Assembly (NCBI RefSeq): GCF_001713395.1
Contig: NZ_CP016452.1
Span: forward strand, 62,001 to 126,000
Direction: 5' to 3'
DNA from: Sinorhizobium sp. RAC02
GTDB taxonomy: Bacteria; Pseudomonadota; Alphaproteobacteria; Rhizobiales; Rhizobiaceae
DNA length: 64,000 nt
Position 1 is the stretch's first letter. Each line of letters begins with the position of its first letter. The position numbers were made by a program, and so were the translations under genes. Shown here one piece after another: positions 11,649 to 61,682 of this stretch. The notes under the pieces are model-generated. The model was not told where the DNA came from and searched no databases. It was given only the letters and a program-made list of their open reading frames with translations.

Positions 11649-11859
11649 GTCCGTGTCATTGCGCGCCTTGTCGGCGTTATGCGTCCGGGCGATGTGGCGC
11701 TCCCGATTCACCGGCAAGCTGCGGCTGAGAACGACGAGCCTCGCAAACGCATTGATCCAAACGGACGATCACCTCCCGAGGCATTTAAAGCTCGGCGAAT
11801 TGCTTTTTGGACGCGTTTCCCGTAGGGGGATCGCACAATCCTTTACGTGAGATCGACCC

Positions 11860-12468
11860 ATGAGAATGCCGCAGCGCAGCTTCGTCGTTGAATTCAACTC
11901 GCGTTCCCGGCAAACTAAAGCAAGCAAGCCCGCGTCAATCTGGGCTGACACGGATTTGAAGGCAGTCGCGCGGCAGGTCGAAGAGCAATCCGCACATCTG
12001 TTCGATCAGTCAGCGGATAGAGAGGCGGCCAAGGCTGCAGCTTCCCGGTTGGAAGCGCCACCTCAGGTCCCCTCCGCGCTGCAGTGTTCGACTTTACCTT
12101 CGGAGTCCGAGACCCCAATGGCCAAATCGCAGGTCACTGACGTTCGGCTCGCAGACAACACGATGGCGAAGGATGTTAAAAATGGGCCGCCCGAAACGGC
12201 CGGGCAGCCACCTGCCGCTTCCGAAACAGCGGCTCCTGCGCCTCAACGCATGACGGTACGCAAGATAAAAACGCGCGCAGTGCAATCCGAGCGCAAAGCC
12301 GCGCCACGAACGGCGCCAGCAGGCGGCCTCAATGCGCAGGAGGCATTCGCTTCGGCTACCGATCTCGCCGCCCTTGAAGGGGAAAACAGGCGGCTGAAAG
12401 CGCTGTTGCGGGAACATCTCTCTGCTGAACACGCACAGCTAGCAGCCATGCTTCTGCGCTTTCAATAG
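11860..12468 (+). CDS. SyrB-like regulator (202 aa), repeat copy 1
   Basis: Most of the protein is low-complexity and Ala/Pro/Lys-rich. The C-terminus holds LEGENRRLKALLREHL and AEHAQLAAMLLRF, the helix pair that marks the SyrB family (ENxRLRxLLAEKLxxENAxLRxxL). SyrB of Sinorhizobium meliloti is a negative regulator acting on syrM in nodulation signalling. The basic stretch TVRKIKTRAVQSERKAAPR may contact nucleic acid. It is convergent with the next SyrB-like gene. Regulatory targets here are unknown. Confidence 0.7.
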   Translation: MRMPQRSFVVEFNSRSRQTKASKPASIWADTDLKAVARQVEEQSAHLFDQSADREAAKAAASRLEAPPQVPSALQCSTLPSESETPMAKSQVTDVRLADNTMAKDVKNGPPETAGQPPAASETAAPAPQRMTVRKIKTRAVQSERKAAPRTAPAGGLNAQEAFASATDLAALEGENRRLKALLREHLSAEHAQLAAMLLRFQ

Positions 12469-12535
12469 GCTGTCTTCCGTACCCTTCTCGTCAAGGTACG
12501 ATCTAGGTTGCGCTCCAACGCTTCGGGATCACGCC

Positions 12536-13090
12536 TTAAGCGTCAGGACCGCCAAATCGCTCCAGCATTTTATGAAGTTGAGCATTCTGCTGCTTCAGTT
12601 TCTCCGCCAGCTGGCGCGTTAACGCCCGGATCTCCACATCAACCCCGGCGACCTCCGCATGGATGTTGGCGCCGGATGGTCTGGTGGAGGTTTGACGGTC
12701 GGCCGCGGCCTCCACCTCCTGGTTCACCGGCTCGGTTGGAGCCGGCTTCTTGCCTCGTCTCGGCCGCGTAACTGGCGGTGTGCTGGCGATCGCCGCTTCG
12801 GGCTCCCTTTTGCTCTTTTGAGCAAGACCTTGATTGGATCTTTTGGATGAACGCGTCGCTACACGATCGATAGCGTCGAGGTTCGCAAGAGAAATGCCGT
12901 CATCGGCTTTGGCGTCCGCCAAGATCGTTTCGTCGGCGTGCGTAACATTCTCGCGCTTGAGTTCAAGGAAGGGCTGAACCGGCGCCGAAGAAGACGAGGA
13001 AGTCTCCTGCCCATCGGCCAATTCCTGCGCCTCTTCCGGCGATCGCCGCCGGAAGACCAGTTGTCCAATCATTTTCCACGGTGACTTCAT
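12536..13090 (-). CDS. SyrB-like regulator (184 aa), repeat copy 1
   Basis: The protein begins MKSPWKMIGQLVFRRRSPEE. It has a long disordered, charged middle with a basic patch (TRPRRGKKPAPTE) and ends with the SyrB-type helix RALTRQLAEKLKQQNAQLHKMLERFG. The shared element is AEKLxxxNAxLxxxL. It is weaker than in the neighbour at 13220 and the rest has diverged. The ribosome site is modest. It is likely a paralogue from an old duplication inside the repeat. Confidence 0.62.
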   Translation of the reverse strand: MKSPWKMIGQLVFRRRSPEEAQELADGQETSSSSSAPVQPFLELKRENVTHADETILADAKADDGISLANLDAIDRVATRSSKRSNQGLAQKSKREPEAAIASTPPVTRPRRGKKPAPTEPVNQEVEAAADRQTSTRPSGANIHAEVAGVDVEIRALTRQLAEKLKQQNAQLHKMLERFGGPDA

Positions 13091-13219
13091 TGTGCTTCAA
13101 CCTCTGGCGTCCGCAGCATGACGTCACGTATTCTACCGCGGGTTCGCGGCGAACCCGAGGCGCGAGAAGTGTTATCGCGCTTGCAACCGAACTGGCTCGG
13201 ACGCGACCCTGTCATTACA

Positions 13220-13630
13220 TCAGGCCAGACCGAGCCGTTTACGCAGATCCGCGTTTTCCGAACGCAGTTTCTCGGCCAGCGTTTGGCGAAGACGCTTGTT
13301 CTCTTCTTCCAGCTGCAGAAGTTCCGCCATCTCGTCCAGAGCAGGAGCGGAGGCTTTCGCTATGGCCTTCGCCGGCTTGACAGCGGCAGGAGTTCTTTTG
13401 GCCCTGGTTTTGATCGGCTTTTCCGTGATCACCGCGACGTTGGTATCAATGCCAGCGTTTGCACCGTGCTTCTTACGCTGTTTTGCAACAGTCGCAGTCT
13501 CCAGCGACGCAGCCTTCGAGTCAGGAGTAGATTTCGCGCGCCGAGGAGCTCGCTGCTTCTTCTGCACCGGAGCATTCACCTCTGTCGATGCCACTTCACC
13601 GTTCTCGATCGTGTTGTTTACATCAGCCAT
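13220..13630 (-). CDS. syrB: SyrB-like transcriptional regulator (136 aa), repeat copy 1
   Basis: This is the clearest SyrB family member: N-terminal NAPVQKKQRAPRRAKST, a second basic region (IKTRAKRTPAAVKPAKA), and the diagnostic C-terminal MAELLQLEEENKRLRQTLAEK followed by LRSENADLRKRLGL. The C-terminus is a leucine-zipper-like amphipathic helix. Length (136 aa) is near that of S. meliloti SyrB (about 150). GGGAGA lies 6 bases before the ATG. It is followed on the same strand by the 184-aa paralogue. Confidence 0.82.
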   Translation of the reverse strand: MADVNNTIENGEVASTEVNAPVQKKQRAPRRAKSTPDSKAASLETATVAKQRKKHGANAGIDTNVAVITEKPIKTRAKRTPAAVKPAKAIAKASAPALDEMAELLQLEEENKRLRQTLAEKLRSENADLRKRLGLA

Positions 13631-13919
13631 AAATTGTCTCCCTCTAAGCCTTGATCGCCTTTGTCCGTCGGCTTGAAGATCGAGTCAATATCTTCGCGTC
13701 TCTACTGGAACACGCTGGCTATCAATGGAAGAAAATGGCGCACGCGCCTGCAACGAAACCGCCGTCATCGGAGCAGCATCGAGCGGTGGTCGGGCGATAG
13801 CTCGAAGCGACCGCGGCGCCTCATCAAGAGCGGCGCGCTGGGGTTCTATGTCGAGACCGACGATGCTTGCCTTTCTCGAACACGGGCCTATCCGGCAATG
13901 GGGGCACTCCATAATCACA

Positions 13920-14050
13920 ATGAAGGTGCCAGCGAGTTGCTGCCAGGCTTTGTACTCGGCCGTCTTCGTTCGGCCTCCTGCCTTCTTATTGACAAAGAGA
14001 CCGTTGATGGACGCATGGGAAGAGCGATGCGGATCATGCGGCCGCCTCTG
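13920..14050 (-). pseudogene. Possible RusA-type resolvase fragment in 13631-14173
   Basis: The 540-base gap between the syrB-like and DUF982 genes has no intact gene I trust. On the minus strand one stretch reads ASINGLFVNKKAGGRTKTAE then YKAWQQLAG, which resembles the N-terminal region of RusA-type Holliday junction resolvases (SVNxLWxN...R..YKAWR). The similarity stops after about 40 residues. The two repeat copies differ by indels here, consistent with non-coding or decayed sequence. Confidence 0.3.
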
Positions 14051-14173
14051 AAAAAATTCGACCTTCCGACCGCGACCAATCTTGAAACCGAAAAAGTTCG
14101 AAAATACATTTCCGGCCGGCGCACGATTCCGACGCCACCCTTGTTGATCACCAACGTTTTCAGTGAGGTAGAG

Positions 14174-14476
14174 ATGAACTCGAAGGTATTTGATAAGCCC
14201 GTCTATCTGAAGGAACGCAGGGAACTCATCCGAGAGATAACGTGCTTGGAAGACGCCATCGACTTTCTGGAAGAATGGCCGGAAAGAGATCGTGACATCG
14301 TGCACGATGCGGCCCTTAAGACCTGCTACATGGCCTTTGACGGTCACAAACCCGTAAAGATCGGACGCGATGCCATCCGCTCCTTTGGGGAAAAGAAGGG
14401 CATACTGGTGAAATCCCCCGGCGTCATGCCGTGGATGATCCGTTCGCGTTCCGGCGGCGGGCGCTTGTCCGCGTAG
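14174..14476 (+). CDS. DUF982 domain protein (100 aa), repeat copy 1
   Basis: The protein starts MNSKVFDKPVYLKERRELIR and has the DUF982 pattern: a strand VYLKER, helix TCLEDAIDFLEEWPE, helix DIVHDAALKTCYMAFDGHKP and a final FGEKKGILVKSPG. This small family is abundant in Rhizobiaceae and has no established function. GAGGTAGAG lies just before the ATG at 14174; the longer frame from 13661 is judged spurious because it is broken by indels between the repeat copies. Confidence 0.75.
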   Translation: MNSKVFDKPVYLKERRELIREITCLEDAIDFLEEWPERDRDIVHDAALKTCYMAFDGHKPVKIGRDAIRSFGEKKGILVKSPGVMPWMIRSRSGGGRLSA

Positions 14477-14607
14477 AGTCTGTAACGATTGGGAGAGGCT
14501 GCGATCGCGGCCTCTCTTCCCAAATGGCCAGTTCATGCTGCCACCTCGCCCGCCGATTGGAACTTTTCCGCGCCGGCCGAAGTTGGTTTCGTGACAAGGA
14601 GACCAGC

Positions 14608-14823
14608 ATGGCCATTGCCCCAATCGATCCTACGCCCAAGCAACCGCCGGATGTCATTCCTGATCTGCCGCCGGATTTGCCCGAGCCGCCCATCAAGGAA
14701 CCGGACCCGGACGTCCTTCCGGACGAATTGCCGAACCCTAACCCGGATGAAGGCAATGACTTGCCGAGGAAGCTTCGTAAGCGTCCGGTGAAGCTCCCTT
14801 TGAGATTTCCCACGAACGCCTGA
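14608..14823 (+). CDS. Proline/aspartate-rich small protein (71 aa), repeat copy 1
   Basis: The ATG at 14608 follows AAGGAGACCAGC, a strong ribosome site. The product is dominated by Pro, Asp and Glu (IPDLPPDLPEPPIKEPDPD), with a basic C-terminus (RKLRKRPVKLPLRF). It has no membrane segment or signal and is probably disordered. It is conserved exactly in protein sequence in the second repeat copy. Short Pro-rich proteins of this type are common in rhizobia, with no known role. Confidence 0.6.
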   Translation: MAIAPIDPTPKQPPDVIPDLPPDLPEPPIKEPDPDVLPDELPNPNPDEGNDLPRKLRKRPVKLPLRFPTNA

Positions 14824-14881
14824 AGTTACCTTGACCTGCCCCTGAACTTTCATCCGGCAGCGATTAGAGCCTCGGCGGTTT

Positions 14882-15167
14882 TGAACCGCCCCAAGTTTCT
14901 GGACCAGCGGAGGGTAGAGTTTTCCGGCCTATCTCAGGGAAGCGGGCTGGCGGCGCTTCCCGGATTCATCAGCGAAATCGGTACCTTGTTGCCGATCGCA
15001 CCATGGGGTCGAAACTCATTATAGTCTCTGCGCCAATCCTCCATCTTTTCGCGGGCGTCCGCAAGGGTCAGGAACCAATGCTGGTTCAGGCACTCCGCTC
15101 GGAAGCGGCCGTTGAAGGCTTCGATAAAAGCATTGTCCGTGGGTTTAAACCCGCCCCAGTCTACCAA
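14882..15167 (-). pseudogene. IS3-family (IS407-like) OrfB, C-terminal fragment with IS end
   Basis: The frame contains KPTDNAFIEAFNGRFRAECL, which holds the catalytic Glu of the IS3 DDE domain, then NQHWFLTLADAREKMEDWRR and YNEFRPHGAIGN. The upstream DDE part is gone at about 15165. The sequence from 14882 (TGAACCGCCCCAAG) looks like the terminal inverted repeat. It is related to, but distinct from, the IS at 61631. The stretch 15168-15334 shows nothing I can identify. Confidence 0.8.
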
Positions 15168-15334
15168 GGAAAGGACACTGCTTTCAGACCCGGGGGCTTT
15201 GGAGACCAGCCTCAGAGTGGCTTTTGGCTCCGAGGAGCATCTGAGTTCGATTGGCGGCGGGGTTACACGTCAGAAAATGTGCATCAGGGCCACTGTCGGT
15301 GCAACCCCGGCCAACTCTCGTTGCAAATGGGCAG

Positions 15335-15610
15335 TCAGGCTCGATCGTAGGTGAAGGATGTCAGCAAGGTCGTCACGAAGTTGCTGGCCCTTTCCTTGAC
15401 AAGCACTTCGGTCCATTCATCGCTTTCTCGAAGTCTGAGATCGGTATAGATGCTGTCGACGGCGGCTTCTTCGATACGTTTGATATGTGCCTTGAAATTT
15501 GCCTCGCCGCCAGCGTGGTACATGTCGCGAATGACCATGCGCAGAATTTCCTGGATTGCGATTTGCCACGCCGTGTTGATCGCCTGGAGCTCGGTCGCAT
15601 TCGGTGCCAT
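15335..15610 (-). CDS. Hypothetical protein (91 aa)
   Basis: The protein starts MAPNATELQAINTAWQIAIQ and appears all-helical and soluble. GAAAGGAGCCCCA precedes the ATG at 15610, a strong ribosome site. Two helices, EILRMVIRDMYHAGGEANFK and KRIEEAAVDSIYTDL, are followed by a C-terminal helix in KERASNFVTTLLTSF. I do not recognise a domain. It lies downstream of, and on the same strand as, the DUF6481 gene. Confidence 0.6.
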   Translation of the reverse strand: MAPNATELQAINTAWQIAIQEILRMVIRDMYHAGGEANFKAHIKRIEEAAVDSIYTDLRLRESDEWTEVLVKERASNFVTTLLTSFTYDRA

Positions 15611-15677
15611 TGGGGCTCCTTTCTTTGAAGTGGAGCCCTAATAAGGGCGTCATGGATTAGGTTGGTTCAGGCAAAGG

Positions 15678-16058
15678 CTAGGCTTGCCTTGCCTTGCGGT
15701 TGGCGTAGCGTCTGTCGCGTTCGGCCTTTCGCAGCGCTTCATCTTCGACCACCCTCGTTATCCGGGCTTTTTCGGCGCGCTCCCGCGCTTCGGTTTCAGC
15801 GGCTACCGCGGCCTCAGCGGCTGCCTGCCGCTCCGCGGCCTCGATCTCGATACGCGTCTGCTCCTCAAGCTTCACGCGCTCGCGTTCAACACGTCGTTCT
15901 TCACGAGCGTTGGAAATGGCTGTGCGTTCCGCCTGCCTTGCGATCCTGGCAGGTTCTGCCGCGGCCTTTGCCGCACGGTAAGCATTGAGCAGAGCGGCTT
16001 TGGCCTCACCGGATGAGGAGCGGCGGTCGGCGACTTCGTTGTTTCTGGCGTTCTTCAT
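15678..16058 (-). CDS. DUF6481 family protein (126 aa)
   Basis: The protein begins MKNARNNEVADRRSSSGEAK and is an almost continuous charged helix rich in Ala, Arg and Glu, ending RDRRYANRKARQA. This is the layout of DUF6481 proteins: ADRR near the start, a long coiled-coil-like helix and an ARKARQ end. The family is common in alphaproteobacteria and often next to cold-shock genes, as here. The start at 16058 has GGGATAAGA upstream. Function is unknown. Confidence 0.78.
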   Translation of the reverse strand: MKNARNNEVADRRSSSGEAKAALLNAYRAAKAAAEPARIARQAERTAISNAREERRVERERVKLEEQTRIEIEAAERQAAAEAAVAAETEARERAEKARITRVVEDEALRKAERDRRYANRKARQA

Positions 16059-16087
16059 TCTTATCCCGATCTTGAGTGGCGTAGCGA

Positions 16088-16312
16088 TCAGCACGACTTG
16101 GCGCGTTTGGCAATGAGATTGGATGTCGCGGACATGCGGTCGGCCAATTCCTTGGCAAGACGCGCCTCTCGCAGCCTGACGGTCTTGGCATCCCGCACCC
16201 GAGTAACCGAATCCAGCTCTTCTACCGCGTTGTTTTTGGCAAAGAACTGCGTCTGCTCGTTGCTAAAGGCGATCTCCGCCTGCTGGCGGGATTTACTGTG
16301 TGTTTCTGTCAT
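16088..16312 (-). CDS. Small charged hypothetical protein (74 aa)
   Basis: The 74-residue product (MTETHSKSRQQAEIAFSNEQ...) is helical and charged, with RDAKTVRLREARLAKELADRM in its second half. GAGG lies close before the ATG. It sits between cspA and the DUF6481 gene on the same strand. A terminator separates it from cspA, so read-through or its own promoter is needed. No known domain. Confidence 0.6.
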   Translation of the reverse strand: MTETHSKSRQQAEIAFSNEQTQFFAKNNAVEELDSVTRVRDAKTVRLREARLAKELADRMSATSNLIAKRAKSC

Positions 16313-16345
16313 GGAACCTCAATGGAGTTCGGCTGGCAACCGAAA

Positions 16346-16374
16346 CGAAAAAGGCCAGGCAAAACGCCTGGCCT
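16346..16374 (-). terminator. Rho-independent terminator of cspA
   Basis: On the minus strand GGCCAGGC (16366-16373) pairs with GCCTGGCC (16353-16360) across a five-base loop and is followed by TTTTTCG. It lies 60 bases behind the cspA stop. Confidence 0.8.
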
Positions 16375-16433
16375 CGATGAAACAGCTTCCGGCAGTGCCA
16401 GTACATCCGTGGTCAAAGGGAAGCGAATCTCAA

Positions 16434-16643
16434 CTATGCCGACTGCAGATTGGTCGCCGACATCTTGCCCGACTTGTTGTCGCGCTCGAGTTCGAAGCCG
16501 ATCTTCTGGCCTTCGACGAGTTCGCGCATTCCGGCGCGCTCGACAGCGGAGATGTGAACGAACGCGTCAGCGCCGCCATTGTCAGGCTGGATGAAGCCGA
16601 AGCCCTTGGTGGAGTTAAACCATTTTACTGTGCCAGTGGTCAT
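16434..16643 (-). CDS. cspA: Cold-shock protein, CspA family (69 aa)
   Basis: The start at 16643 gives a 69-residue protein with the two RNA-binding motifs of the cold-shock domain: [18 protein letters not shown] (RNP1) and [13 protein letters not shown] (RNP2). It ends GKMSATNL, a common alphaproteobacterial variant. It acts as an RNA chaperone that melts secondary structure. A GC-rich hairpin lies 30-50 bases upstream in the leader, which may contribute to control as in other csp leaders. Confidence 0.95.
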
Positions 16644-16674
16644 GACGAACCCTTTCAAAGCATAGAATGAGGGC

Positions 16675-16696
16675 CCGCGGAAGCAATGCTTCGCGG
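16675..16696 (-). promoter_or_regulatory. Hairpin in the cspA leader
   Basis: CCGCGGAAGCA pairs with TGCTTCGCGG (one bulge) 32 bases upstream of the cspA ATG. Together with A/T-rich sequence up to about 16830 it suggests a structured 5' leader. The rest of 16700-17154 shows no gene I can support. Confidence 0.4.
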
Positions 16697-17154
16697 ACGG
16701 TGATACGACTATTTTTGAGAGAGAAGGTTCGAATAGAGCGCGGTGCCAATCGCGCGGTAGACAAAGCTCGGCAAGCAAAAGATCGATAACGCATCTATAG
16801 GGTATTGAGATTACCACGTCAACGATTAGTTTTTGCTGGGCGCCGCCTCATCCATAGGTTGCCCCATCTAAATGAGTCATCAGATTCCTGAAAAAGACAT
16901 GCTGCGGTAACCATATCGAAGCCGCTGGGTTCCTCAATTGTTGACGACGCTGAACGCCTCGTTGTTTTCTTGAGGGATGCGAACCGGCAACCCTACCTTC
17001 CGCTCGATCAACGACCATGCCAACGAAGTGTAATGCCTGTTCAGGCTCGATATGATATGTTGTCTTAGAACGTCAGTGTGATTTGCGTCCGGCGGCGTTC
17101 CTGCCGAGTGATGGCTCGTACCCTGCGAGTTTTCGGCCCTTGAGGGCCATTTCC

Positions 17155-18205
17155 ATGTCGAACGCACCGATAGTTCATTTCGAAGCGGCGAGTACGCTTG
17201 CCGTGGTGGTTTCATCGAACGAGCCGCTGCTTTTCCTCTCCAAAGACCAGAGGGTCATTGCAGCGAGCACATCGTTCTGCCGGACGTTCGAAATCGATCC
17301 CGCGACTATTCCCGGCAGACCGCTCGGTTCGCTTGGAAACGGCGAATGGGCAATGCCCAACCTCGCCTCGCTCCTGCAGGCGACCGCTTCCGGAAGCGCG
17401 CGGATCGAGGCCTACGAAATCGATCTCCAGCGGCCAAACCGCAGGACGCGACAGTTGATCGTCAATGCGCAGATCCTCGACGATGGCGACACGGCGCATA
17501 TCCGGCTCCTGCTGGCCATCACCGACGTCACGGACGCGCGCGCCGAAGCGAAACTGAAAGACGATCTTATCCGGGAGAAGGCCATCCTGATGCAGGAGGT
17601 CCAGCACCGCGTCGCCAACAGCCTTCAGATCATCGCCAGCGTTCATGCAGAGCGCACGCCGGGTTCAGTCCGAGGAAGCGCGCGGCCATCTGCACAACGC
17701 CCATCACCGGGTCATGTCGATCGCGGCCGTGCAACGGCAGCTTTCTACGTCCAGCGGCGGCAGCGTCGAGCTTCGCACCTACTTCACGCAGCTTTGCGAA
17801 AGCCTTGGCGCGTCGATGATCGCCGACGACGACCGGCTTTCGATATCGGTGACAGTGGATGACAGCGCGGTGGAAGCCGACATTTCCATCAGCCTTGGGC
17901 TGATCGTGACCGAATTGGTGATCAACGCGCTCAAGCACGCCTTCCCGGGGCAGCAAACCGGCACGATCCTTGTCGACTATTGCTCAACGGGCGGCGACTG
18001 GACGCTTTCTGTCACTGACGACGGCATCGGCATGCCGACCGGTAGCGTTGCCCCCAAGTCCGGCCTTGGGACCGGCATCGTCGAAGCGCTTGCCAGGAAC
18101 CTAAACGGCGAAATCCAGGTGAGCGATGCGAACCCCGGGACCGCCATAACCATCAGGCATCGGGGAGACGCCGATCGCCAAACCAGACTTCCGGCCGCCG
18201 CCTAG
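17155..18205 (+). pseudogene. PAS-HWE/HisKA_2 sensor histidine kinase with internal frameshift
   Basis: The first frame (from MSNAPIVHFEAAS at 17155) covers a PAS-like sensor (residues 20-130) and the phospho-acceptor box LMQEVQHRVANSLQIIASV. The second frame, from about 17645, continues with the family sequence after the box and then the ATPase: ELVINALKHAFPG (N box), DDGIGMP (G1), GLGTGIVEAL (G2). One or two bases are lost or gained at about 17640. If real, the kinase is dead; if a sequencing error, it is a normal soluble 350-aa kinase. A receiver protein gene follows. Confidence 0.82.
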
Positions 18206-18382
18206 AGCTATTCCAGCAAAAGTGCGCAGCGGTTTCGCGCCCGGAATTGCAAAAAACAAAGAGAGGGAGCGTTTTCGCGATTCGAAGAAAAGCGGAAACG
18301 ATCCAGGAACTTATCCCCCGCTGGAACGCTCTATCAGGGAGCGGACAGGGTCCGCTTCAAACGATGCCCTGATGAGGGTCAG

Positions 18383-18754
18383 ATGTTCAACGGCAAGGCG
18401 GTCATCCTCGTGGTCGAAGACAGTGCTCTCATTCGGATGAGCGCCATCGATCTGGTGCGATCTGCGGGTTACGAGGCCCTTGAGGCGAGCGACGCCGACG
18501 AGGCCATTCGCATCCTGGAAGCGAGAGCGGACATCGACCTGGTGTTCACGGATGTACAGATGCCGGGAACGATGGACGGCATCAAACTGGCCCACTACAT
18601 CCGTGATCGATGGCCGCCGGTGAAATTGATCGTCGCGTCCGGCAATGCAATCATCGAAGAGAGCAACCTGCCGACGGGGAGCCGGTTCTTCGCGAAACCC
18701 TATGAAGATCATGCGATCGCAGACGCGATGGCCCGTATGCTGTTGAGCCCATAG
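18383..18754 (+). CDS. Single-domain response regulator
   Basis: The 123-residue protein is one receiver domain: acidic pocket VVEDS near residue 12, phospho-acceptor Asp in VFTDVQMPGTMDG (about 57), Thr/Ser position replaced by IVASGN, and conserved Lys in FFAKPY. No output domain is present. It follows the HWE kinase by 177 bases and is the probable partner in a stress-type phosphorelay. Confidence 0.9.
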   Translation: MFNGKAVILVVEDSALIRMSAIDLVRSAGYEALEASDADEAIRILEARADIDLVFTDVQMPGTMDGIKLAHYIRDRWPPVKLIVASGNAIIEESNLPTGSRFFAKPYEDHAIADAMARMLLSP

Positions 18755-18889
18755 GGGTCCCCGCGCGTGCCGGAGGCATGTCCGCACAGCAAAGCCGGCA
18801 CCCTCGACTGAGAAATTTGCCGGCTCCGTCATTCTTTCGCTGGACAGCGGGCGATCCGAAGATCGCCCGTTCAAGGGATTGCGGATTGG

Positions 18890-19261
18890 TTACTTGGCCA
18901 GATGCCAAACGCCCCCGACGCCGTCGCCGTTGGTTTCACCGGCCTTCTTGTCCTCGACATAGGTGTAGAGCGGCTTGCCTTCATAGGCCCACATCTCCAT
19001 GCCGTCCGCCGCCTTGACCAAAGACCATTCTCCTTCAGCCTTGGCGCTCGCGGCGGCGTGGAATGCCGGCCATTTCTTCAGGCAGTCCGCATCGCAGTTT
19101 GACTTGTCTTTGGCATCCTTGTCGAAAGTGTAGAGGATCATCCCCTTCTCGTCGGCCAAAGCCTTGCCCATCTTGGTGTCGACCATCTTGGCAGGCTCGG
19201 CTGCGAACGCCGACCCGCACAGAGCAGACACCAGGCCGATCGCAATCAACATCGTTCTCAT
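18890..19261 (-). CDS. Secreted COG4315-type repeat protein
   Basis: The 123-residue product has a Sec signal peptide (MLIAIGLVSALCGSAFA, cleaved before AEPAK). The mature part has two copies of the 'secreted repeat of unknown function': GMILYTFDKDAKDKSNCDADCLKKWPAF and KPLYTYVEDKKAGETNGDGV, each with YxFxxD-like and the first with a CxxxC pair. The start at 19261 is chosen because GGAG lies 7 bases upstream. It is periplasmic; role unknown, often linked to stress. Confidence 0.85.
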   Translation of the reverse strand: MRTMLIAIGLVSALCGSAFAAEPAKMVDTKMGKALADEKGMILYTFDKDAKDKSNCDADCLKKWPAFHAAASAKAEGEWSLVKAADGMEMWAYEGKPLYTYVEDKKAGETNGDGVGGVWHLAK

Positions 19262-19417
19262 GACATTCTCCAATTCGGGAGTGCCGGCGGAATGCCAGTA
19301 GCGCCCGATCTAACGAGGAGAAACCCATCAGGGCTGGAAGAGGTTCCCTTCGGCGTCATCCAATCGGAACGGTCAAAACGGCAGCGGGCGATTCCAGTCG
19401 AGCCGGCCCCGCCGTCG

Positions 19418-21334: not shown

Positions 21335-21447
21335 GGCGACTTCATCTCCCCGAACCGATGCAAGCGGAAACCTGGGGCAGGCGCCGCGGATGTCAAATCG
21401 AGACGGCGAGGCCTTCAGGCTCGCTCACAGGAATGTCGCCCCTGACG

Positions 21448-22232: not shown

Positions 22233-22300
22233 GCCACACCTTCCCACTGCTCGCTGGCGGCGAGCCAACCCCGGGGAACGTGAAGAGGAAGAAGCAGTGT

Positions 22301-27907: not shown

Positions 27908-27935
27908 GTGACTTCAGCTCACAAATGATGTTCCT

Positions 27936-49921: not shown

Positions 49922-49943
49922 GATGAGAATCCTCCCTCGTTAT

Positions 49944-51038: not shown

Positions 51039-51064
51039 GGTAACCTCCCGTTTGATATGCTCGT

Positions 51065-52123: not shown

Positions 52124-52125
52124 GC

Positions 52126-53220: not shown

Positions 53221-53223
53221 GGC

Positions 53224-54180: not shown

Positions 54181-55037
54181 TGCTTGAGCGCTCCGAAGGT
54201 CAGACCCCGGACCAGATGCTTCTGGATGGCGATGCCCATGATGACAGGCGGGACGGCGGCGATCAGGCCGAGCGCGGCCTTGGCGCCATAAAGCTGGCCG
54301 GTCATGGAGGACGAGAGCGAGGCCATGTAGACCGGGATGGTCACCCATTCGCGCGTCGTCAGAAGTAGCGCGATGAGATAGTCCGACCAGTTCAGGATGA
54401 AGACGAAGAGCGCGGAGCTGGCGAGTGCCGGGCGCATGATCGGCAGCGTGATTTTCAGGAAAACGCGCAGGCGAGAGCATCCCTCGACGAGTGCTGCATC
54501 CTCGATTTCGCGCGGCATATCGTCGAAAAATGTCTTCATCAGCCAAAAGGCGAAAGGCAACGTGACAATGCCGTAGATCAGCGCAAGGCCCCACCAGCTA
54601 TCGACCAGGCCGAAGAAGGCCCACATGATCATGACGGGGATCATAACCGCCATCGGGGGAAAGAGCCTCAGCTGGATGAGCGCCAACGGCAAGTTCCGCC
54701 CGGAACCGAACCGCGACAGGCCATAGGCGCCCGCCGTGCCCGCTGTTATAGCAATCAGCGTGCCGAAGACGGCCGAAAACAGCGAGGCGAGGATCGGCTT
54801 GCCCGCAGTGCGATCGAGGGCGACGATGAGATCCGAGGTCGAGGTTCCGAAGATGAACCGGAAGTTATCGAGCGTCGGGTTCTTCGGCCACCAGGTCAGG
54901 TCGGCGCCGGCGGCAGACCATTCGGCAATCGGCTTGAAGGCCATCGAGGCCATCCAGAGCGTTGGAATGAGCGTGACCGCCAACGCCAGAAGAATGGTGG
55001 TGTAGCGGAAGATCTCGAAGGTCAGCGAGCGGTTCAT
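54177..55037 (-). CDS. Sugar ABC transporter permease, UgpE/MalG-like
   Basis: The 286-residue protein has six helices, the EAA loop [20 protein letters not shown] and the end [17 protein letters not shown], which is typical of MalG-type subunits. The ATG at 55037 has no strong ribosome site. It lies 77 bases after the binding-protein stop, behind a GC-rich hairpin, so expression is likely lower than that of the binding protein. Confidence 0.92.
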
Positions 55038-55073
55038 GATCGCAAAGGTCACTTGTCGAAAACAGGAAGAAGG

Positions 55074-55098
55074 CGCCGGGCGAACAGGCCGCCCGGCG
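55074..55098 (-). promoter_or_regulatory. Intercistronic hairpin after Tat-exported binding-protein gene
   Basis: CGCCGGGCG (55074-55082) pairs with CGCCCGGCG (55090-55098) across seven bases, between the binding-protein stop and the permease start, with no T-run. Likely an mRNA-stabilising stem. Confidence 0.55.
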
Positions 55099-55114
55099 AT
55101 CGGGTCATGCCGGC

Positions 55115-56731
55115 TCAGCCGGCCAGCGGATCGAGCACCGTCGGCCACGCCTGCTTGTTCGACTTGATGGCTTCGAGCAGCTTGTCCTCACCCGTGCGCC
55201 GCGCGATGCGCTGCCATTGCTTCTCGGTATCGGCCATCGCCTCCTCCGGCGTCTTCGCCTTGGTCAGCGCTGCCATGAGGTTTTCGTCTAGCGCGTTGTG
55301 GAATGCGGTCGCGCCCGGATAGTTGATCGAGGGCACGGTGCGCGCCACCGTCTCCCGCACGACGTCCATGTGGTAGTCGTGATAGGTCTGGCGCACCAGC
55401 GGGTCGGCGAAGTTCGACAGCTGGAACGGGTCGAAGTAGCCGCCCGGATTGGCCGTCATCCACGAATAGATGCGGCTGGAACCCAGCCATTGCAGCAGCA
55501 GGTAGCAGACCTCGGGATGTTTGCTCTGCGCCGAGACTGACGCCGAGAGGTTGAGCCACAGGACAGAGCGGCTGACGAGCTGGCCGCCGACATCGCGGCC
55601 GGGCGGCAGCATGGAACCGATCTTGCCGGTGACCTTGGAGCCCTCGTTCGCCTTGTTGTCGAGGAACTTCGGCAGGTTCGAAAAGGCGCAGGTCATCGCC
55701 GCACCACCCGAGGCGAAGTTGCCGTACTGCTCTGGCCAGCCCCACGAGATTGCGTCCGGCGAATGGTGGCTGAGCGAATCGACATACTCATGGGTAGCGA
55801 GATAACCGGCTTCCGAATTGATCAAAGCCTTGCCGTCGTCGCCGAAGAGGAACTGGTTGGGCGAACCCATCGAAACGAAGCGCTGGTACCAGTTCGTGTA
55901 ACCCCACCCCTGGTTGCGCAGGTCCGTCGAGCCGAAAAGGCCCTTGTCCGGGCGGTGAAAGAATGCTGCAACGTCGGAGTGTTCCTTCCAGGTGCGCGGC
56001 GGGGCGAGCGCATAGCCATATTTGTCGGAGAAGGCCTTCTTCTCCGCCTCGTCGTTGAACAGGTCGGTGCGGTAGTTCCAGGTCTGGAAGTCGCCGTCGA
56101 GCGAAACGCCGTAGGTCGAGCCGCGATACTGGTTGAGAAGCGAAACGCCTTTGGCGCCGTTGACATAGCCGCGTTCCGGATCGTCCCATTCCGGCTTATG
56201 CTTGGCGACATAGTCGTCGAGCTTGATGATGCCGGCCGTTTCGACGAGATCGCCGAGGCGGTTCCACTCCACGGCATAAATGTCGAACGCTCCGCCCTTG
56301 GTGGAGATATCCTGCATCGTCTTGGTGAATTCCTGGCCGTTCGGCACGCCGACGATATCCAGGGTGATGCCGGTTTCTTTCTCCCAGAGCTCCTTGATGG
56401 ACGGCGCACCGGCGGGGAAGGCCTGCGTCAGCTGGCCGATCGAACCGTCGGACAGACCGAGCACGATACGCTCTGGTGCCTTGCCGGCGCTCTTCAGTGC
56501 CTTGGCAGCTTCGACGGCGCGGCCTTCCGGCGTGTCGGCGCCGTACTGGTAGCGCTCAGCCCCTTCGAAGCCGGTCGGACCGCCGATCATGCCGGGCGCG
56601 AGCGCGTCGGCCGCAAAGGCCCGGCCTGGACGGATGAACTGCGGCGCAATTCCGACCGCAGCAGTCAATGCAAATGTCTTCGCGCCGGCTGCCAGAAGGC
56701 CACGGCGCGAGACCGTCAGAAACTCGCTCAT
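55115..56731 (-). CDS. Tat-exported sugar ABC transporter substrate-binding protein
   Basis: The 538-residue protein starts with a twin-arginine signal, [20 protein letters not shown], with the cleavage region near GRAFA. The mature family-1 binding protein has [40 protein letters not shown], and [20 protein letters not shown]. It is longer than typical 420-residue proteins. Tat export implies folding before export. It heads operon C and is divergent from a LacI gene. Confidence 0.93.
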
Positions 56732-56774
56732 TGATGTTCTCCTCCATGCCGAGAGGTCTCCTCACCCGTCAGCG

Positions 56775-56895
56775 TGATGATTAATGGCGGCATCATTGAT
56801 TGGCGTCAACATCATTTTACCTCATATTGCGTCTTTTGGCTTCAATTGCTTAAGTCAGTAGGCGTCTAGGAGCGAAAACTGACGGAAAATGATGG
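56775..56895. promoter_or_regulatory. Divergent promoter region of operon C with ATGATG-type repeats
   Basis: TGATG (56775) and CATCA (56791) form an inverted repeat, CATCATTTTA follows at about 56809, and the reverse-complement element AAAATGATG recurs near 56887. They lie between the binding-protein gene and the divergent LacI gene, and are candidate operators. Not certain. Confidence 0.35.
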
Positions 56896-57014
56896 GCTAG
56901 GCCCGCGCCACACGCGTGGTTTTCTGAGGAAAAGCTGATTTGCCTACGCATACCCCTTGTATTTCGGATGGAGAGAAATACATCATTTCGCGTCATTTTG
57001 TGGAAGGACACGCT

Positions 57015-58034
57015 TTGCGCTCGACATTGACGGACATTGCCCGTGAAGCCGGCGTTTCACCGGCGACAGTGGATAGGGTCCTCAACAATCGTCAGGGCGT
57101 GCGGGATCGGACCCGCGACGCCGTGCTCGAGACCGCCCGCAAACTAGGCTATCTCACCGGACCGTTCTCGGAAGTGACGACTGCGGCCGGGAAAATTCGG
57201 CTAGACTTCGTACTTCCGGCCGGCACGAACACCTTCGTCGCTAACCTTCTCACGCAGCTTGTCAATCAGGGCGCCCTTCAGGAAGACCTCGACATCCGCG
57301 TTCACTCAATTGAAGGCTTTAATCCGGATACGCTTGCACGCACGCTCAATTCGTTGGTGGGCCTAACGCAGGGCGTCGGCGTCATCGCCCTCGACCATCC
57401 CACCGTACGAGAGGCCATGCGCGAACTCTCGCTATCTGGCGTGCCGATCGTGACGCTTGTCTCCGATATCCTTCACGTGCCTCGCGCAGGGTATGTCGGC
57501 ATCGACAACCGTGCGGCAGGCAGGCTTGCCGGCTATCTGCTTGGCCGTTTCCTCGGCAGTGGTACGAAGCGGAAGATCGCGCTGTTCGCCGGGTCGCTGT
57601 CTTATCGCGGGCACGAAGAGCGCGAAATGGGCTTCCGTCACGTCATCACGGAAGAATTCCCAGATCTCGATGTCGTCGAACTGCGCGAAGTCCGCGACGA
57701 CCGCCAACGCGCCTATGAGGAAGCGGTCTCCCTTTTCAAGCGCCACCCCGATCTCTCCGGGATCTACAATATCGGCGCCGGCAATGCCGGGATTGGCCTG
57801 GCGCTACAGGAGACCGGCATCGCATCCTCGGTCATCTTCGTCGGCCACGAACTGACGGAGAGCACCAAGCGCTTTCTTCTCGACGGCACCATCGATGCCG
57901 TCATCGACCAAAATCCGCGCGTAGAGGCGCGCGAAGCCATTTCCATGCTGAAAAACACGATCCTCGGCGGGAAATTCGACCACCACCCGCCGCGACTTCA
58001 GGTCATTTTCCGAGAGAACATCCCGGAATCGTGA
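57015..58034 (+). CDS. LacI-family transcriptional regulator
   Basis: The protein has LTDIAREAGVSPATVDRVLN as the DNA-binding helices with hinge RDRTRDAVLETARKLGYL, and a sugar-binding effector domain (VSDILHVPRAGYVGIDNRAA, FAGSLSYRGHEEREMGFRHV). I choose the TTG at 57015 because GGAAGGA lies 7 bases upstream and the product then begins right before the helix-turn-helix, as in LacI proteins (339 aa). A longer frame opens at 56940. It probably controls operon C. Confidence 0.9.
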   Translation: MRSTLTDIAREAGVSPATVDRVLNNRQGVRDRTRDAVLETARKLGYLTGPFSEVTTAAGKIRLDFVLPAGTNTFVANLLTQLVNQGALQEDLDIRVHSIEGFNPDTLARTLNSLVGLTQGVGVIALDHPTVREAMRELSLSGVPIVTLVSDILHVPRAGYVGIDNRAAGRLAGYLLGRFLGSGTKRKIALFAGSLSYRGHEEREMGFRHVITEEFPDLDVVELREVRDDRQRAYEEAVSLFKRHPDLSGIYNIGAGNAGIGLALQETGIASSVIFVGHELTESTKRFLLDGTIDAVIDQNPRVEAREAISMLKNTILGGKFDHHPPRLQVIFRENIPES

Positions 58035-58608
58035 GATCTACTTATCCGAAATTGAAGCGGGGCCACTCATTGCAGTAGCTATTGCTGGTTGTTGGCGCAC
58101 GCTTGCTCAGAAGAGGCTCCGGAAAATCAGCATGCGGTCAACAGATTTCTCCGCCGCACCAATCAAGTGCCTGGTTCATTGGGGCAGTGCTAACGAGCTT
58201 GACACTGGAGCCACAGGAGAGCGGTGTAGCATTCGATTCGCGAACTTGTCGGCGGCATGACCGCGCAGCAAGCTGCCTGGAAACTCCGCGGTCTCTCGCC
58301 CGCTACATTAGGTCTTGATGGAATCAGAACCGGTGGCCCCGTGAAAATCCCAACTCATATGGAAATTCACAGCCTACACAAGACCTTGAGTACGAATGAC
58401 CGAGTTGGTCCGGCAGCTAACTCGAAGCGGAAAACTAGAGCCTTTGCGCTCCCGATTCACCGGCAAGCTGCGGCTGAGAACGACGAGCCTCGCAAACGCA
58501 TTGATCCAAACGGACGATCACCTCCCGAGGCATTTAAAGCTCGGCGAATTGCTTTTTGGACGCGTTTCCCGTAGGGGGATCGCACAATCCTTTACGTGAG
58601 ATCGACCC

Positions 58609-59217
58609 ATGAGAATGCCGCAGCGCAGCTTCGTCGTTGAATTCAACTCGCGTTCCCGGCAAACTAAAGCAAGCAAGCCCGCGTCAATCTGGGCTGACAC
58701 GGATTTGAAGGCAGTCGCGCGGCAGGTCGAAGAGCAATCCGCACATCTGTTCGATCAGTCAGCGGATAGAGAGGCGGCCAAGGCTGCAGCTTCCCGGTTG
58801 GAAGCGCCACCTCAGGTCCCCTCCGCGCTGCAGTGTTCGACTTTACCTTCGGAGTCCGAGACCCCAATGGCCAAATCGCAGGTCACTGACGTTCGGCTCG
58901 CAGACAACACGATGGCGAAGGATGTTAAAAATGGGCCGCCCGAAACGGCCGGGCAGCCACCTGCCGCTTCCGAAACAGCGGCTCCTGCGCCTCAACGCAT
59001 GACGGTACGCAAGATAAAAACGCGCGCAGTGCAATCCGAGCGCAAAGCCGCGCCACGAACGGCGCCAGCAGGCGGCCTCAATGCGCAGGAGGCATTCGCT
59101 TCGGCTACCGATCTCGCCGCCCTTGAAGGGGAAAACAGGCGGCTGAAAGCGCTGTTGCGGGAACATCTCTCTGCTGAACACGCACAGCTAGCAGCCATGC
59201 TTCTGCGCTTTCAATAG
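58609..59217 (+). CDS. SyrB-like regulator (202 aa), repeat copy 2
   Basis: The protein is identical to the product at 11860-12468. It has the C-terminal LEGENRRLKALLREHL helix of the SyrB family after a long low-complexity region. Two identical copies in one replicon double the dosage of this presumed regulator. Flanking order is the same as in copy 1. Confidence 0.7.
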   Translation: MRMPQRSFVVEFNSRSRQTKASKPASIWADTDLKAVARQVEEQSAHLFDQSADREAAKAAASRLEAPPQVPSALQCSTLPSESETPMAKSQVTDVRLADNTMAKDVKNGPPETAGQPPAASETAAPAPQRMTVRKIKTRAVQSERKAAPRTAPAGGLNAQEAFASATDLAALEGENRRLKALLREHLSAEHAQLAAMLLRFQ

Positions 59218-59284
59218 GCTGTCTTCCGTACCCTTCTCGTCAAGGTACGATCTAGGTTGCGCTCCAACGCTTCGGGATCACGCC

Positions 59285-59839
59285 TTAAGCGTCAGGACCG
59301 CCAAATCGCTCCAGCATTTTATGAAGTTGAGCATTCTGCTGCTTCAGTTTCTCCGCCAGCTGGCGCGTTAACGCCCGGATCTCCACATCAACCCCGGCGA
59401 CCTCCGCATGGATGTTGGCGCCGGATGGTCTGGTGGAGGTTTGACGGTCGGCCGCGGCCTCCACCTCCTGGTTCACCGGCTCGGTTGGAGCCGGCTTCTT
59501 GCCTCGTCTCGGCCGCGTAACTGGCGGTGTGCTGGCGATCGCCGCTTCGGGCTCCCTTTTGCTCTTTTGAGCAAGACCTTGATTGGATCTTTTGGATGAA
59601 CGCGTCGCTACACGATCGATAGCGTCGAGGTTCGCAAGAGAAATGCCGTCATCGGCTTTGGCGTCCGCCAAGATCGTTTCGTCGGCGTGCGTAACATTCT
59701 CGCGCTTGAGTTCAAGGAAGGGCTGAACCGGCGCCGAAGAAGACGAGGAAGTCTCCTGCCCATCGGCCAATTCCTGCGCCTCTTCCGGCGATCGCCGCCG
59801 GAAGACCAGTTGTCCAATCATTTTCCACGGTGACTTCAT
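59285..59839 (-). CDS. SyrB-like regulator (184 aa), repeat copy 2
   Basis: Identical to the 184-residue product at 12536-13090, with the terminal LAEKLKQQNAQLHKMLERFG helix. The central region is disordered and carries the basic patch TRPRRGKKPAPTE. It lies behind the 136-aa SyrB-like gene on the same strand. Confidence 0.62.
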   Translation of the reverse strand: MKSPWKMIGQLVFRRRSPEEAQELADGQETSSSSSAPVQPFLELKRENVTHADETILADAKADDGISLANLDAIDRVATRSSKRSNQGLAQKSKREPEAAIASTPPVTRPRRGKKPAPTEPVNQEVEAAADRQTSTRPSGANIHAEVAGVDVEIRALTRQLAEKLKQQNAQLHKMLERFGGPDA

Positions 59840-59968
59840 TGTGCTTCAACCTCTGGCGTCCGCAGCATGACGTCACGTATTCTACCGCGGGTTCGCGGCG
59901 AACCCGAGGCGCGAGAAGTGTTATCGCGCTTGCAACCGAACTGGCTCGGACGCGACCCTGTCATTACA

Positions 59969-60379
59969 TCAGGCCAGACCGAGCCGTTTACGCAGATCCG
60001 CGTTTTCCGAACGCAGTTTCTCGGCCAGCGTTTGGCGAAGACGCTTGTTCTCTTCTTCCAGCTGCAGAAGTTCCGCCATCTCGTCCAGAGCAGGAGCGGA
60101 GGCTTTCGCTATGGCCTTCGCCGGCTTGACAGCGGCAGGAGTTCTTTTGGCCCTGGTTTTGATCGGCTTTTCCGTGATCACCGCGACGTTGGTATCAATG
60201 CCAGCGTTTGCACCGTGCTTCTTACGCTGTTTTGCAACAGTCGCAGTCTCCAGCGACGCAGCCTTCGAGTCAGGAGTAGATTTCGCGCGCCGAGGAGCTC
60301 GCTGCTTCTTCTGCACCGGAGCATTCACCTCTGTCGATGCCACTTCACCGTTCTCGATCGTGTTGTTTACATCAGCCAT
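59969..60379 (-). CDS. syrB: SyrB-like transcriptional regulator (136 aa), repeat copy 2
   Basis: Identical to the clearest SyrB family member at 13220-13630, ending LQLEEENKRLRQTLAEKLRS and ENADLRKRLGL. GGGAGA lies before the ATG at 60379. It is probably active if copy 1 is. Confidence 0.82.
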   Translation of the reverse strand: MADVNNTIENGEVASTEVNAPVQKKQRAPRRAKSTPDSKAASLETATVAKQRKKHGANAGIDTNVAVITEKPIKTRAKRTPAAVKPAKAIAKASAPALDEMAELLQLEEENKRLRQTLAEKLRSENADLRKRLGLA

Positions 60380-60922
60380 AAATTGTCTCCCTCTAAGCCT
60401 TGATCGCCTTTGTCCGTCGGCTTGAAGATCGAGTCAATATCTTCGCGTCTCTACTGGAACACGCTGGCTATCAATGGAAGAAAAGGCGCACGCGCCTGCA
60501 ACGAAACCGCCGTCATCGGAGCAGCATCGAGCGGTGGTCGGGCGATAGCTCGAAGCGACCGCGGCGCCTCATCAAGAGCGGCGCGCTGGGGTTCTATGTC
60601 GAGACCGACGATGCTTGCCTTTCTCGAACACGGGCCTATCCGGCAATGGGGGCACTCCATAATCACAATGAAGGTGCCAGCGAGTTGCTGCCAGGCTTTG
60701 TACTCGGCCGTCTTCGTTCGGCCTCCTGCCTTCTTATTGACAAAGAGACCATTGATGGAGGCATGGGAAGAGCGATGCGGATCCTGCGGCCGCCCTCTGA
60801 AAAAATTCGACCTTCCGACCGCGACCAATCTTGAAACCGAAAAAGTTCGAAAATACATTTCCGGCCGGCGCACGATTCTGACGCCACCCTTGTTGATCAC
60901 CAACGTTTTCAGTGAGGTAGAG

Positions 60923-61225
60923 ATGAACTCGAAGGTATTTGATAAGCCCGTCTATCTGAAGGAACGCAGGGAACTCATCCGAGAGATAACGTGCTTGGAA
61001 GACGCCATCGACTTTCTGGAAGAATGGCCGGAAAGAGATCGTGACATCGTGCACGATGCGGCCCTTAAGACATGCTACATGGCCTTTGACGGTCACAAAC
61101 CCGTAAAAATCGGACGCGATGCCATCCGCTCCTTTGGGGAAAAGAAGGGCATATTGGTGAAATCCCCAGGCGTCATGCCGTGGATGATCCGTTCGCGTTC
61201 CGGCGGCGGGCGCTTGTCCGCGTAG
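60923..61225 (+). CDS. DUF982 domain protein (100 aa), repeat copy 2
   Basis: The protein matches the 14174-14476 copy; the four or so base changes I noticed are silent (for example ACC to ACA Thr and AAG to AAA Lys). Silent-only change suggests both copies are under selection or the copies are young. The frame starts at the ATG with GAGGTAGAG before it. Confidence 0.75.
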   Translation: MNSKVFDKPVYLKERRELIREITCLEDAIDFLEEWPERDRDIVHDAALKTCYMAFDGHKPVKIGRDAIRSFGEKKGILVKSPGVMPWMIRSRSGGGRLSA

Positions 61226-61356
61226 AGTCTGTAACGATTGGGAGAGGCTGCGATTGCGGCCTCTCTTCCCAAATGGCCAGTTCATGCTGCCACCTCGCCC
61301 GCCGATTGGAACCTTTCCGCGCCGGCCGAAGTTGGTTTCGTGACAAGGAGACCAGA

Positions 61357-61572
61357 ATGGCCATTGCCCCAATCGATCCTACGCCCAAGCAACCGCCGGA
61401 TGTCATTCCTGATCTGCCGCCGGATTTGCCCGAGCCGCCCATCAAGGAACCGGACCCGGACGTCCTTCCGGACGAATTGCCGAACCCTAACCCGGATGAA
61501 GGCAATGACTTGCCGAGGAAGCTTCGTAAGCGTCCGGTGAAGCTCCCTTTGAGATTTCCCACGAACGCCTGA
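61357..61572 (+). CDS. Proline/aspartate-rich small protein (71 aa), repeat copy 2
   Basis: Same protein as at 14608-14823; the ribosome site AAGGAG is kept, with one base change (AGCATG to AGAATG) next to the start. A TGACCTGCCCC motif begins 8 bases after the stop in both copies and could be an old IS terminus. Confidence 0.6.
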   Translation: MAIAPIDPTPKQPPDVIPDLPPDLPEPPIKEPDPDVLPDELPNPNPDEGNDLPRKLRKRPVKLPLRFPTNA

Positions 61573-61682
61573 AGTCACGTTGACCTGCCCCTGAACTTTC
61601 ATCCGGCAGCGATTAGAGCCTCGGCGGTCTTGCTCTGAGCCCAAACCTTGGACCGCCGGGAGTTGGAGTTTTCCGGCTCTTA

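What the first reader, a model, noticed from the sequence alone, without database searches (positions are those of the whole stretch)
11697..61628. A 3.18-kb direct repeat brackets a 43.6-kb segment
Copies at 11697-14879 and 58446-61628 are in the same orientation with a constant offset of 46749. They bracket the segment 14880-58445, which includes the whole catabolic island. The start and end points are sharp and shared. Direct repeats of this length allow RecA-dependent excision as a circle or tandem amplification, so the segment could be gained, lost or multiplied as a unit. The repeat contains no transposase of its own; each right end meets a different IS3-type element.
Basis: partly seen in the sequence, partly recalled or inferred. 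Interest (0 to 1): 0.78.

Follow-up and report, generated by a model that had tools for sequence, protein, structure and literature searches.

The report
Long direct repeat around mosaic segment
A soil bacterium's large second replicon carries two nearly identical 3.2-kilobase DNA copies 47 kilobases apart that could recombine, but the sugar-utilisation island between them occurs without these copies in related species, so the pair is most likely a separate, ordinary duplication.

Summary
The repeat is real: 11697-14879 and 58446-61628, same orientation, 15 differing columns of 3184. All differences lie in the last third; the first 2039 bp are identical, as expected if gene conversion has homogenised part of it. 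It has no inverted ends, no target duplication and no transposase. It carries three small regulator-like genes (one SyrB-like), a DUF982 gene and the 50-bp tip of an ISAtu5-type IS3 element.

RecA-dependent excision or amplification is possible; shorter direct repeats do this in Rhizobium etli. The stronger claim, that the repeats define a unit with the island, is not supported. The catabolic island (30822-58038) lies collinear in 3 of 20 other genomes of the genus (inferred Shinella), one 96.5% identical, and none of the 20 holds the whole repeat. The 43.6 kb is a patchwork; 5.3 kb of it is duplicated about 0.49 Mb away.

The shared right end has its own explanation. Both copies stop where a different IS3 element abuts exactly 50 bp inside the ISAtu5-type tip. 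That junction recurs: 21 of 36 right ends of this IS clade have such a tip 50-52 bp outside (0.17 expected), suggesting an IS that homes into IS ends.

The parts
11697..14881 (+).
58446..61630 (+).
11697..13735 (+). Block identical in both copies, 2039 bp (copy 2: 58446-60484)
13736..14881 (+). Diverged block: 14 substitutions and 2 one-base indels (copy 2: 60485-61630)
11860..12468 (+). Small ORF, 202 aa (copy 2: 58609-59217); 29% identical homologue at C3 about 1.876 Mb
12536..13090 (-). Small ORF, 184 aa (copy 2: 59285-59839); homologues at C3 about 711 kb (47%) and 1.876 Mb (29%)
13220..13630 (-). SyrB-like regulator, 136 aa (copy 2: 59969-60379)
   Evidence: translation; the three top-ranked plasmid hits (about 51% identity) are annotated 'SyrB-like regulator'; no Pfam or NCBIfam hit
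14174..14476 (+). DUF982 protein, 100 aa; identical protein in copy 2 (60923-61225) despite 4 synonymous SNPs
   Evidence: Pfam PF06169 on the copy 2 ORF, codon comparison
14832..14881 (.). 50-bp right-end tip of an ISAtu5-type IS3 element (copy 2: 61581-61630)
14882..15147 (-). IS-A: 3' fragment of an IS3 element; a 1221-bp full copy at C3 about 1.988-1.990 Mb is 94.8% identical to it
61631..62865 (-). IS-B: IS3 element of 1235 bp, inverted ends TGCTCTGAGCCC / TGCTCTGATCCCC, no target duplication (...TCT | ... | CAT...)
15149..22245 (.). Module collinear, with gaps, with G302:C38 (87-92%), starting one base after IS-A
17140..22410 (.). 5.27-kb segment duplicated in inverted orientation at C3:575990-581257, 99.64%
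26999..29211 (.). LysR regulator and aldo/keto reductase; 94.9% to G306:C8, a contig other than that of G306's island
29344..30803 (-). Aldehyde dehydrogenase region, 96% identical to C1:241713-243172
30822..58038 (.). Catabolic island proper (CoA transferase, ABC transporters, SDR, lactonase, epimerase, LacI regulators, by comparison with an annotated plasmid); collinear in G306, G157, G075 without the repeat
58039..58445 (.). Left flank of copy 2; no match in the 20 other genus genomes or in PLSDB
5832..11607 (-). Outer left flank: ars operon (ArsK-type MFS, flavoprotein, ArsH, ArsC, ACR3, ArsR), by comparison with Rhizobium rhizogenes pC6.5b

Best explanation
The two copies are a segmental duplication of ordinary accessory DNA (three small regulator-like genes, a DUF982 gene and an IS tip) on the 2.22-Mb replicon of a Rhizobiaceae strain, probably Shinella. 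They are not a transposon and not the ends of the catabolic island. Shown: two slightly diverged copies in direct orientation; an island that occurs without them; a patchwork interior. Inferred: the copies pair through RecA, and gene conversion has homogenised the first 2 kb. The same pairing could delete the 46.7-kb interval (leaving one copy) or duplicate it in tandem, at an unknown rate. Inferred: the common right end is not the end of the duplicated unit. Each copy once ran on into an ISAtu5-type element; IS3 elements of one clade that favour a site 50-52 bp inside IS tips entered both copies at the same nucleotide, and later rearrangement removed the rest.
For: Copies and differences. Differences only in the last 1146 bases, about 8e-8 if evenly spread (post hoc). 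Copy 1 carries the majority base of the DUF982 homologues at 5 of the 6 differences they cover. Four of four coding SNPs synonymous, so both copies look genuine and functional. No inverted ends and no target duplication seen around either copy (ends compared by eye). Island in 3 of 20 other genus genomes with common edges, whole repeat in 0 of 20. G306 island 96.5% identical over its length, against about 82-91% for the G306 matches of 900 bp or more to two 15-kb chromosomal samples, so the island seems to have moved without the repeat. Second long duplication. IS junction statistics. Precedents read in passages: PMC10932983 (871-bp, 98% identical direct repeats appear to delete part of the R. 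etli symbiotic plasmid) and PMC6778807 (two 2.56-kb IS66 copies in tandem orientation, 270-kb deletion leaving one copy, RecA not tested).
Against: How the duplication arose is not shown: no IS, repeat or tRNA signature was found at the left breakpoints (11697, 58446). Gene conversion is inferred from uneven divergence; two blocks of different age would look the same. At the sixth covered site (14506) the homologues are split, 3 with the copy 2 base and 2 with the copy 1 base. No single-copy or tandem form was found. Genomes held are one per species and many are drafts, and in the searches only a limited number of candidates per genome were scored (2, 14), so a strain with the deleted form or a diverged copy could go unseen.
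Confidence: 0.72

Rival explanations
1. Campbell-type integration: a 46.7-kb circle carrying the island, the 15.1-30.8 kb genes and one copy of the repeat recombined with a resident copy, producing the flanking direct repeat.
For: Direct orientation and full-length homology fit. In G075 contig C14 the module 15154-16248 lies 10.4 kb beyond the island's right end in the same relative orientation, the permuted order such a circle predicts.
Against: In G075 two contigs (C7 and C14) end in this same module, so its order is ambiguous. No replication, transfer or site-specific recombinase gene appeared among the 30 proteins scanned with Pfam, which do not cover every interior ORF. Interior pieces lie on separate contigs in G306. 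Outer flanks have no close counterpart in the genus genomes searched, so an empty site could not be tested (6 other genomes, 20 others).
Confidence: 0.15
2. One reading: the repeats bracket a functional unit that is gained, lost or amplified as one.
For: Geometry permits it; shorter direct repeats do it in R. etli and A. tumefaciens.
Against: Island found without repeats in three relatives and with its own edges 15.9 kb and 0.4 kb inside the repeats; whole repeat absent from the other 20 genus genomes.
Confidence: 0.08
3. The repeat is itself a transposable unit.
For: Two copies with unrelated left flanks; the right edge contains an IS tip.
Against: No terminal inverted repeats or target duplication seen, no transposase hit, and no full copy reported in 296 other family genomes (two candidates scored per genome) or 20 other genus genomes.
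Confidence: 0.04
4. Assembly artefact.
For: Long repeats are commonly misassembled; no reads available.
Against: Four distinct flanks, 16 differences confined to one part, 4 of 4 coding SNPs synonymous.
Confidence: 0.01

Closest known systems
F7 direct repeats of the Rhizobium etli symbiotic plasmid (PMC10932983, passages read)
   Same: Direct repeats on a large rhizobial plasmid; recombination between them removes the intervening DNA
   Different: 871 bp, 98% identical, deletions recovered in experiments; here 3.18 kb, 99.5%, nothing shown by experiment
IS66 pair flanking the 270-kb deletable segment of pAt15955 in Agrobacterium tumefaciens (PMC6778807, passages read)
   Same: Direct repeats of 2.5-3 kb on a Rhizobiaceae megaplasmid; loss leaves one copy
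   Different: Those repeats are whole insertion sequences; here ordinary genes
[quoted passage not shown] the original work of Partridge and Hall seen only as a reference)
   Same: An insertion sequence whose preferred target is the end of another mobile element
   Different: Those are IS1111-family elements in Tn3-family ends; IS-A/IS-B are IS3 family, 50-52 bp inside IS3-type tips
IS3-family elements with fixed targets in REP sequences (ISPsy8, IS1397, ISKpn1; PMC1525189, passages read)
   Same: Target specificity within the IS3 family; ISPsy8 always at the same point of the target
   Different: Target is a REP palindrome, not an IS tip

Membership tests
Recombinogenic long direct repeat (RecA substrate) | Same orientation on one replicon, kilobase length, near identity | tested here: met
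   2039 identical bp, 15 differing columns of 3184
Recombinogenic long direct repeat (RecA substrate) | Observed deletion, circle or tandem amplification | not testable with these tools
   No reads; genomes held are one per species
Recombinogenic long direct repeat (RecA substrate) | Sign of past exchange between copies | tested here: inconclusive
   Divergence confined to the last third; fits gene conversion, but blocks of different age are not excluded
Composite or unit transposon | Terminal inverted repeats and target duplication at 11697/14881 and 58446/61630 | tested here: not met
   ends and flanks printed and compared by eye
Composite or unit transposon | Transposase inside the repeat, or IS of one kind at both ends | tested here: not met
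   IS DNA only at the right ends, from different elements
Integrative element at a tRNA | tRNA target, integrase, short att repeats | tested here: not met
   No tRNA in window; no site-specific recombinase among 30 scanned proteins, not all ORFs; repeats are 3.18 kb
IS that targets ends of other mobile elements | Insertion at a fixed position relative to a mobile-element end | tested here: met
   21 of 36 right ends have a TGACCTG-type tip at 50-52 bp, 0.17 expected; 15 of 36 do not
IS that targets ends of other mobile elements | Target duplication, host element on both sides | tested here: inconclusive
   4-bp duplication in 5 of 31 rows, but in only 2 of the 16 rows with a tip; host orfA on the far side in 4 of those 16 (L139, L141, L155, L159, by eye); window copy 2 has neither
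IS that targets ends of other mobile elements | Demonstrated transposition into the site | not testable with these tools
   Needs experiment

The most novel reading that the evidence does not exclude
IS-A and IS-B belong to an IS3-family clade that homes into the ends of other IS3 elements, landing 50-52 bp inside the tip with its right end facing outwards, in several different hosts and sometimes in its own kind (a ladder of tips in L145). A duplicated stretch that carries one such tip is then cut back at the same nucleotide wherever a different member lands, which gives repeats with coincident, IS-bounded ends without common transposition.
Probability: 0.65. Interest if true: 0.55.

Novelty: new member of a known kind. 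Interest (0 to 1): 0.36.

Why it matters
As a direct repeat it is an ordinary substrate for megaplasmid plasticity, and it warns against reading bracketing as common origin: the island occurs without the repeats. The by-product may matter more. A clade of IS3 elements whose preferred landing site is the inner edge of other IS3 tips would be a safe-harbour strategy inside other mobile elements, would blur IS boundaries in annotation, and could explain IS tips left next to a different IS3 element in rhizobia. It is testable from existing genomes.

Tried and rejected
Named relatives of the 184-aa repeat protein in genome contigs: none confirmed. tRNA as an integration site: none in the window or in eight other stretches. 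Left breakpoint as an IS end: no match of 58038-58620 in PLSDB; 11600-11860 matched only arsR sequence and weak short stretches. A TGACC about 49 bp before 58446 was seen by eye but has two mismatches to the tip motif, so I do not claim it. Empty-site test: the outer right flank has no good counterpart in 20 other genus genomes; the outer left flank, searched in 6 other genus genomes, gives mainly ars genes at about 68-78%. The permuted order in G075 as proof of a circle was dropped because two contigs end in the same module. The idea that the 50 bp are simply the outer end of IS-B was dropped as a general rule because 4-bp duplications flank the inner end in 5 of 31 rows and flank the outer end in 0 of the 16 rows with a tip; it stays possible for single lineages. 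The + strand ORF 13118-13654 was rejected in favour of the SyrB-like gene on the minus strand. Literature searches for an IS3 element that targets IS ends (open-access library, capped listings) showed none; that is not proof of absence.
Full report
Setting. The window is contig C3 (2,220,160 bp), positions 62001-126000, of a 6.63-Mb genome in three contigs. This is an inference from lengths.

The observation. The copies are at the stated places and orientation. A gapped alignment of 11697-14881 with 58446-61630 gives 14 substitutions and two one-base indels in 3186 columns. The first 2039 bp are identical; the first difference is at 13736. The two indels compensate each other and sit upstream of the DUF982 start codon (14174). 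By megablast no other repeat of at least 200 bp and 90% identity joins two places of C3:1-246000. Elsewhere in the genome only partial, diverged relatives of the repeat were found, 68-82% identical.

Content. The repeat holds an ORF of 202 aa (+), one of 184 aa (-), a SyrB-like regulator of 136 aa (-; the three top-ranked plasmid hits, about 51% identical, are annotated 'SyrB-like regulator') and a 100-aa DUF982 protein. The first two have homologues at other places on C3 (47% and 29% identity). The last 50 bp are the tip of an ISAtu5-type IS3 element: in two annotated plasmids the same stretch closes a transposase gene, and among 12 loci from unnamed family genomes that hold the tip, an ISAtu5-type body follows it in 9 (by eye). 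There are no terminal inverted repeats and no target duplications visible around either copy.

Exchange between copies. If 16 differences fell evenly, all lying in the last 1146 bases would have probability 8e-8; the cut is chosen after the fact, so this is a guide only. Six of the 16 differences are covered by 11 homologous DUF982 regions (two of them, L040 and L059, are the same plasmid locus; one, L004, is a paralogue on C1). Copy 1 has the majority base at 5 of the 6; at the sixth (14506) the homologues are split, 3 with the copy 2 base and 2 with the copy 1 base. In the DUF982 gene 4 of 4 SNPs are synonymous. So both copies have probably been real and functional for some time, and the left two thirds were homogenised later, most simply by gene conversion. 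Two blocks of different age remain possible.

Is the bracketed DNA a unit? A probe from the island (45000-56000) finds full-length matches in 3 of 20 other genus genomes: G306 (98%), G075 and G157 (90%); the other 17 show only single-gene matches. Aligning their surroundings shows one collinear block, window 30822-58038, with edges within a few bases of each other. None of the 20 holds the whole repeat; 17 of them hold partial matches, the largest being the DUF982 gene (14 candidates scored per genome). No whole copy was reported in 296 other family genomes either (two candidates scored per genome). For comparison, the G306 matches of at least 900 bp to two 15-kb chromosomal stretches of this strain are 82-91% identical, while the island is 96.5% over its whole length. 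The island therefore seems to have moved recently between these lineages, without the repeat. The rest of the interval is pieced together: 14882-15147 is an IS fragment; 15149-22245 is collinear, with gaps, with G302:C38; 17140-22410 is 99.64% identical to an inverted copy at C3:575990-581257; 26999-29211 is 94.9% to a different contig of G306 than the island; the aldehyde dehydrogenase region 29344-30803 is 96% to a stretch of C1. Region 58039-58445 has no match in the genus or PLSDB.

The right end. Copy 1 meets the right end of IS-A at 14882, copy 2 that of IS-B at 61631, each exactly 50 bp inside the same ISAtu5-type tip. IS-A and IS-B are about 71-74% identical. Three of the 12 tip loci from other family genomes (L027, L032, L035) show the same junction with yet other members. 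I then collected 69 loci with matches to IS-B: 13 of the 15 plasmid hits listed, leaving out two with the same coordinates in sister Phaeobacter plasmids, plus the loci returned (both capped). Of these, 36 distinct right-end flanks of 60 bp were available, the window's own among them. A TGACCTG-type tip (at most one mismatch) begins 50, 51 or 52 bp outside 21 of the 36; background predicts 0.17. The 15 without it include two (L110, L145) where another kind of IS tip seems to start 50-51 bp away (by eye). Left ends show the motif at 42-60 bp in 6 of 37, of which at least two (L111, L167) look like real tips; control windows further out gave 7 of 107 (right) and 5 of 111 (left). Similar flanks count separately in these numbers (for example L128 and L129, both without a tip), and some members share ancestry, so the probability printed is too small. 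Both ends could be seen in 31 rows, about 28 elements; 16 of the rows have a tip. In 4 of these 16 (L139, L141, L155, L159) the host's orfA start lies on the far side, so the IS sits inside the host. Four-base duplications are seen in 5 of the 31 rows, 2 of them with a tip. Against a simple picture: in 12 of the 16 rows with a tip, the window's copy 2 included, no host orfA follows, and in 14 of the 16 there is no duplication, so later deletion, recombination between copies or one-ended events must be assumed.

Mechanism. Shown: a long direct repeat, genuine divergence, independence of the island. Inferred: RecA-mediated pairing with gene conversion; possible deletion or tandem duplication of 46.7 kb. 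Precedents were read in passages: 871-bp, 98% identical repeats on the R. etli symbiotic plasmid (PMC10932983) and the IS66 pair on pAt15955, where the authors infer homologous recombination but could not test recA (PMC6778807). How the second copy was laid down is unresolved; the left breakpoints carry no signature that I found. A Campbell-type integration stays possible, but its one supporting observation, the order in G075, is ambiguous.

Known or new. The repeat is a new example of a known kind. The tip-targeting IS3 clade resembles in principle IS4321/IS5075 in Tn21 ends (PMC8269217) and IS3 elements in REP sequences (PMC1525189). My literature searches listed no report of IS3 elements placed at a fixed distance inside IS3 tips; the library is open-access only and the listings were capped. 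IS911, an IS3-family element, is known for targeted insertion, of which I saw only titles in a reference list; its target there is recalled to be sequences like its own ends.

Noticed in passing
window 17140-22410 and C3:575990-581257: A second recent duplication, 5.27 kb, 99.64% identical, inverted; it could support an inversion of about 0.5 Mb on C3.
   Followed up: partly
window 61631-62865, L108-L176: IS3 clade whose right end lies 50-52 bp inside tips of other IS3 elements in 21 of 36 cases.
   Followed up: yes
L145 (Nitratireductor pOM-1): A ladder of about 50-bp IS tips in a row before a full element, one of them the element's own tip (by eye).
   Followed up: no
L146, L109: An IS110-family transposase gene lies inside the IS-B-like element in Rhizobium rhizoryzae and Sulfitobacter dubius plasmids: nested insertions.
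   Followed up: no
window 22586-22890: Two adjacent elements of about 152 bp with further copies, 83-95% identical, elsewhere in this genome and in G300.
   Followed up: no
window 18193-18306: A roughly 113-bp element with many 85-91% copies across the genus, possibly an intergenic repeat family.
   Followed up: no
window 30822-58038: Catabolic island 96.5% identical to G306 although chromosomal samples are about 82-91%: recent horizontal transfer likely.
   Followed up: partly
window 29344-30803: Aldehyde dehydrogenase gene beside the island, 96% identical to a stretch of contig C1.
   Followed up: no
window 1-462: IS240-type transposase end (Pfam DDE_Tnp_IS240) at the window edge, 100% identical to C3:467355-467816.
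   Followed up: no
window 11860-13630: Three small regulator-like proteins whose C-terminal tails look alike by eye (charged, leucine-rich), with diverged relatives elsewhere on C3.
   Followed up: partly
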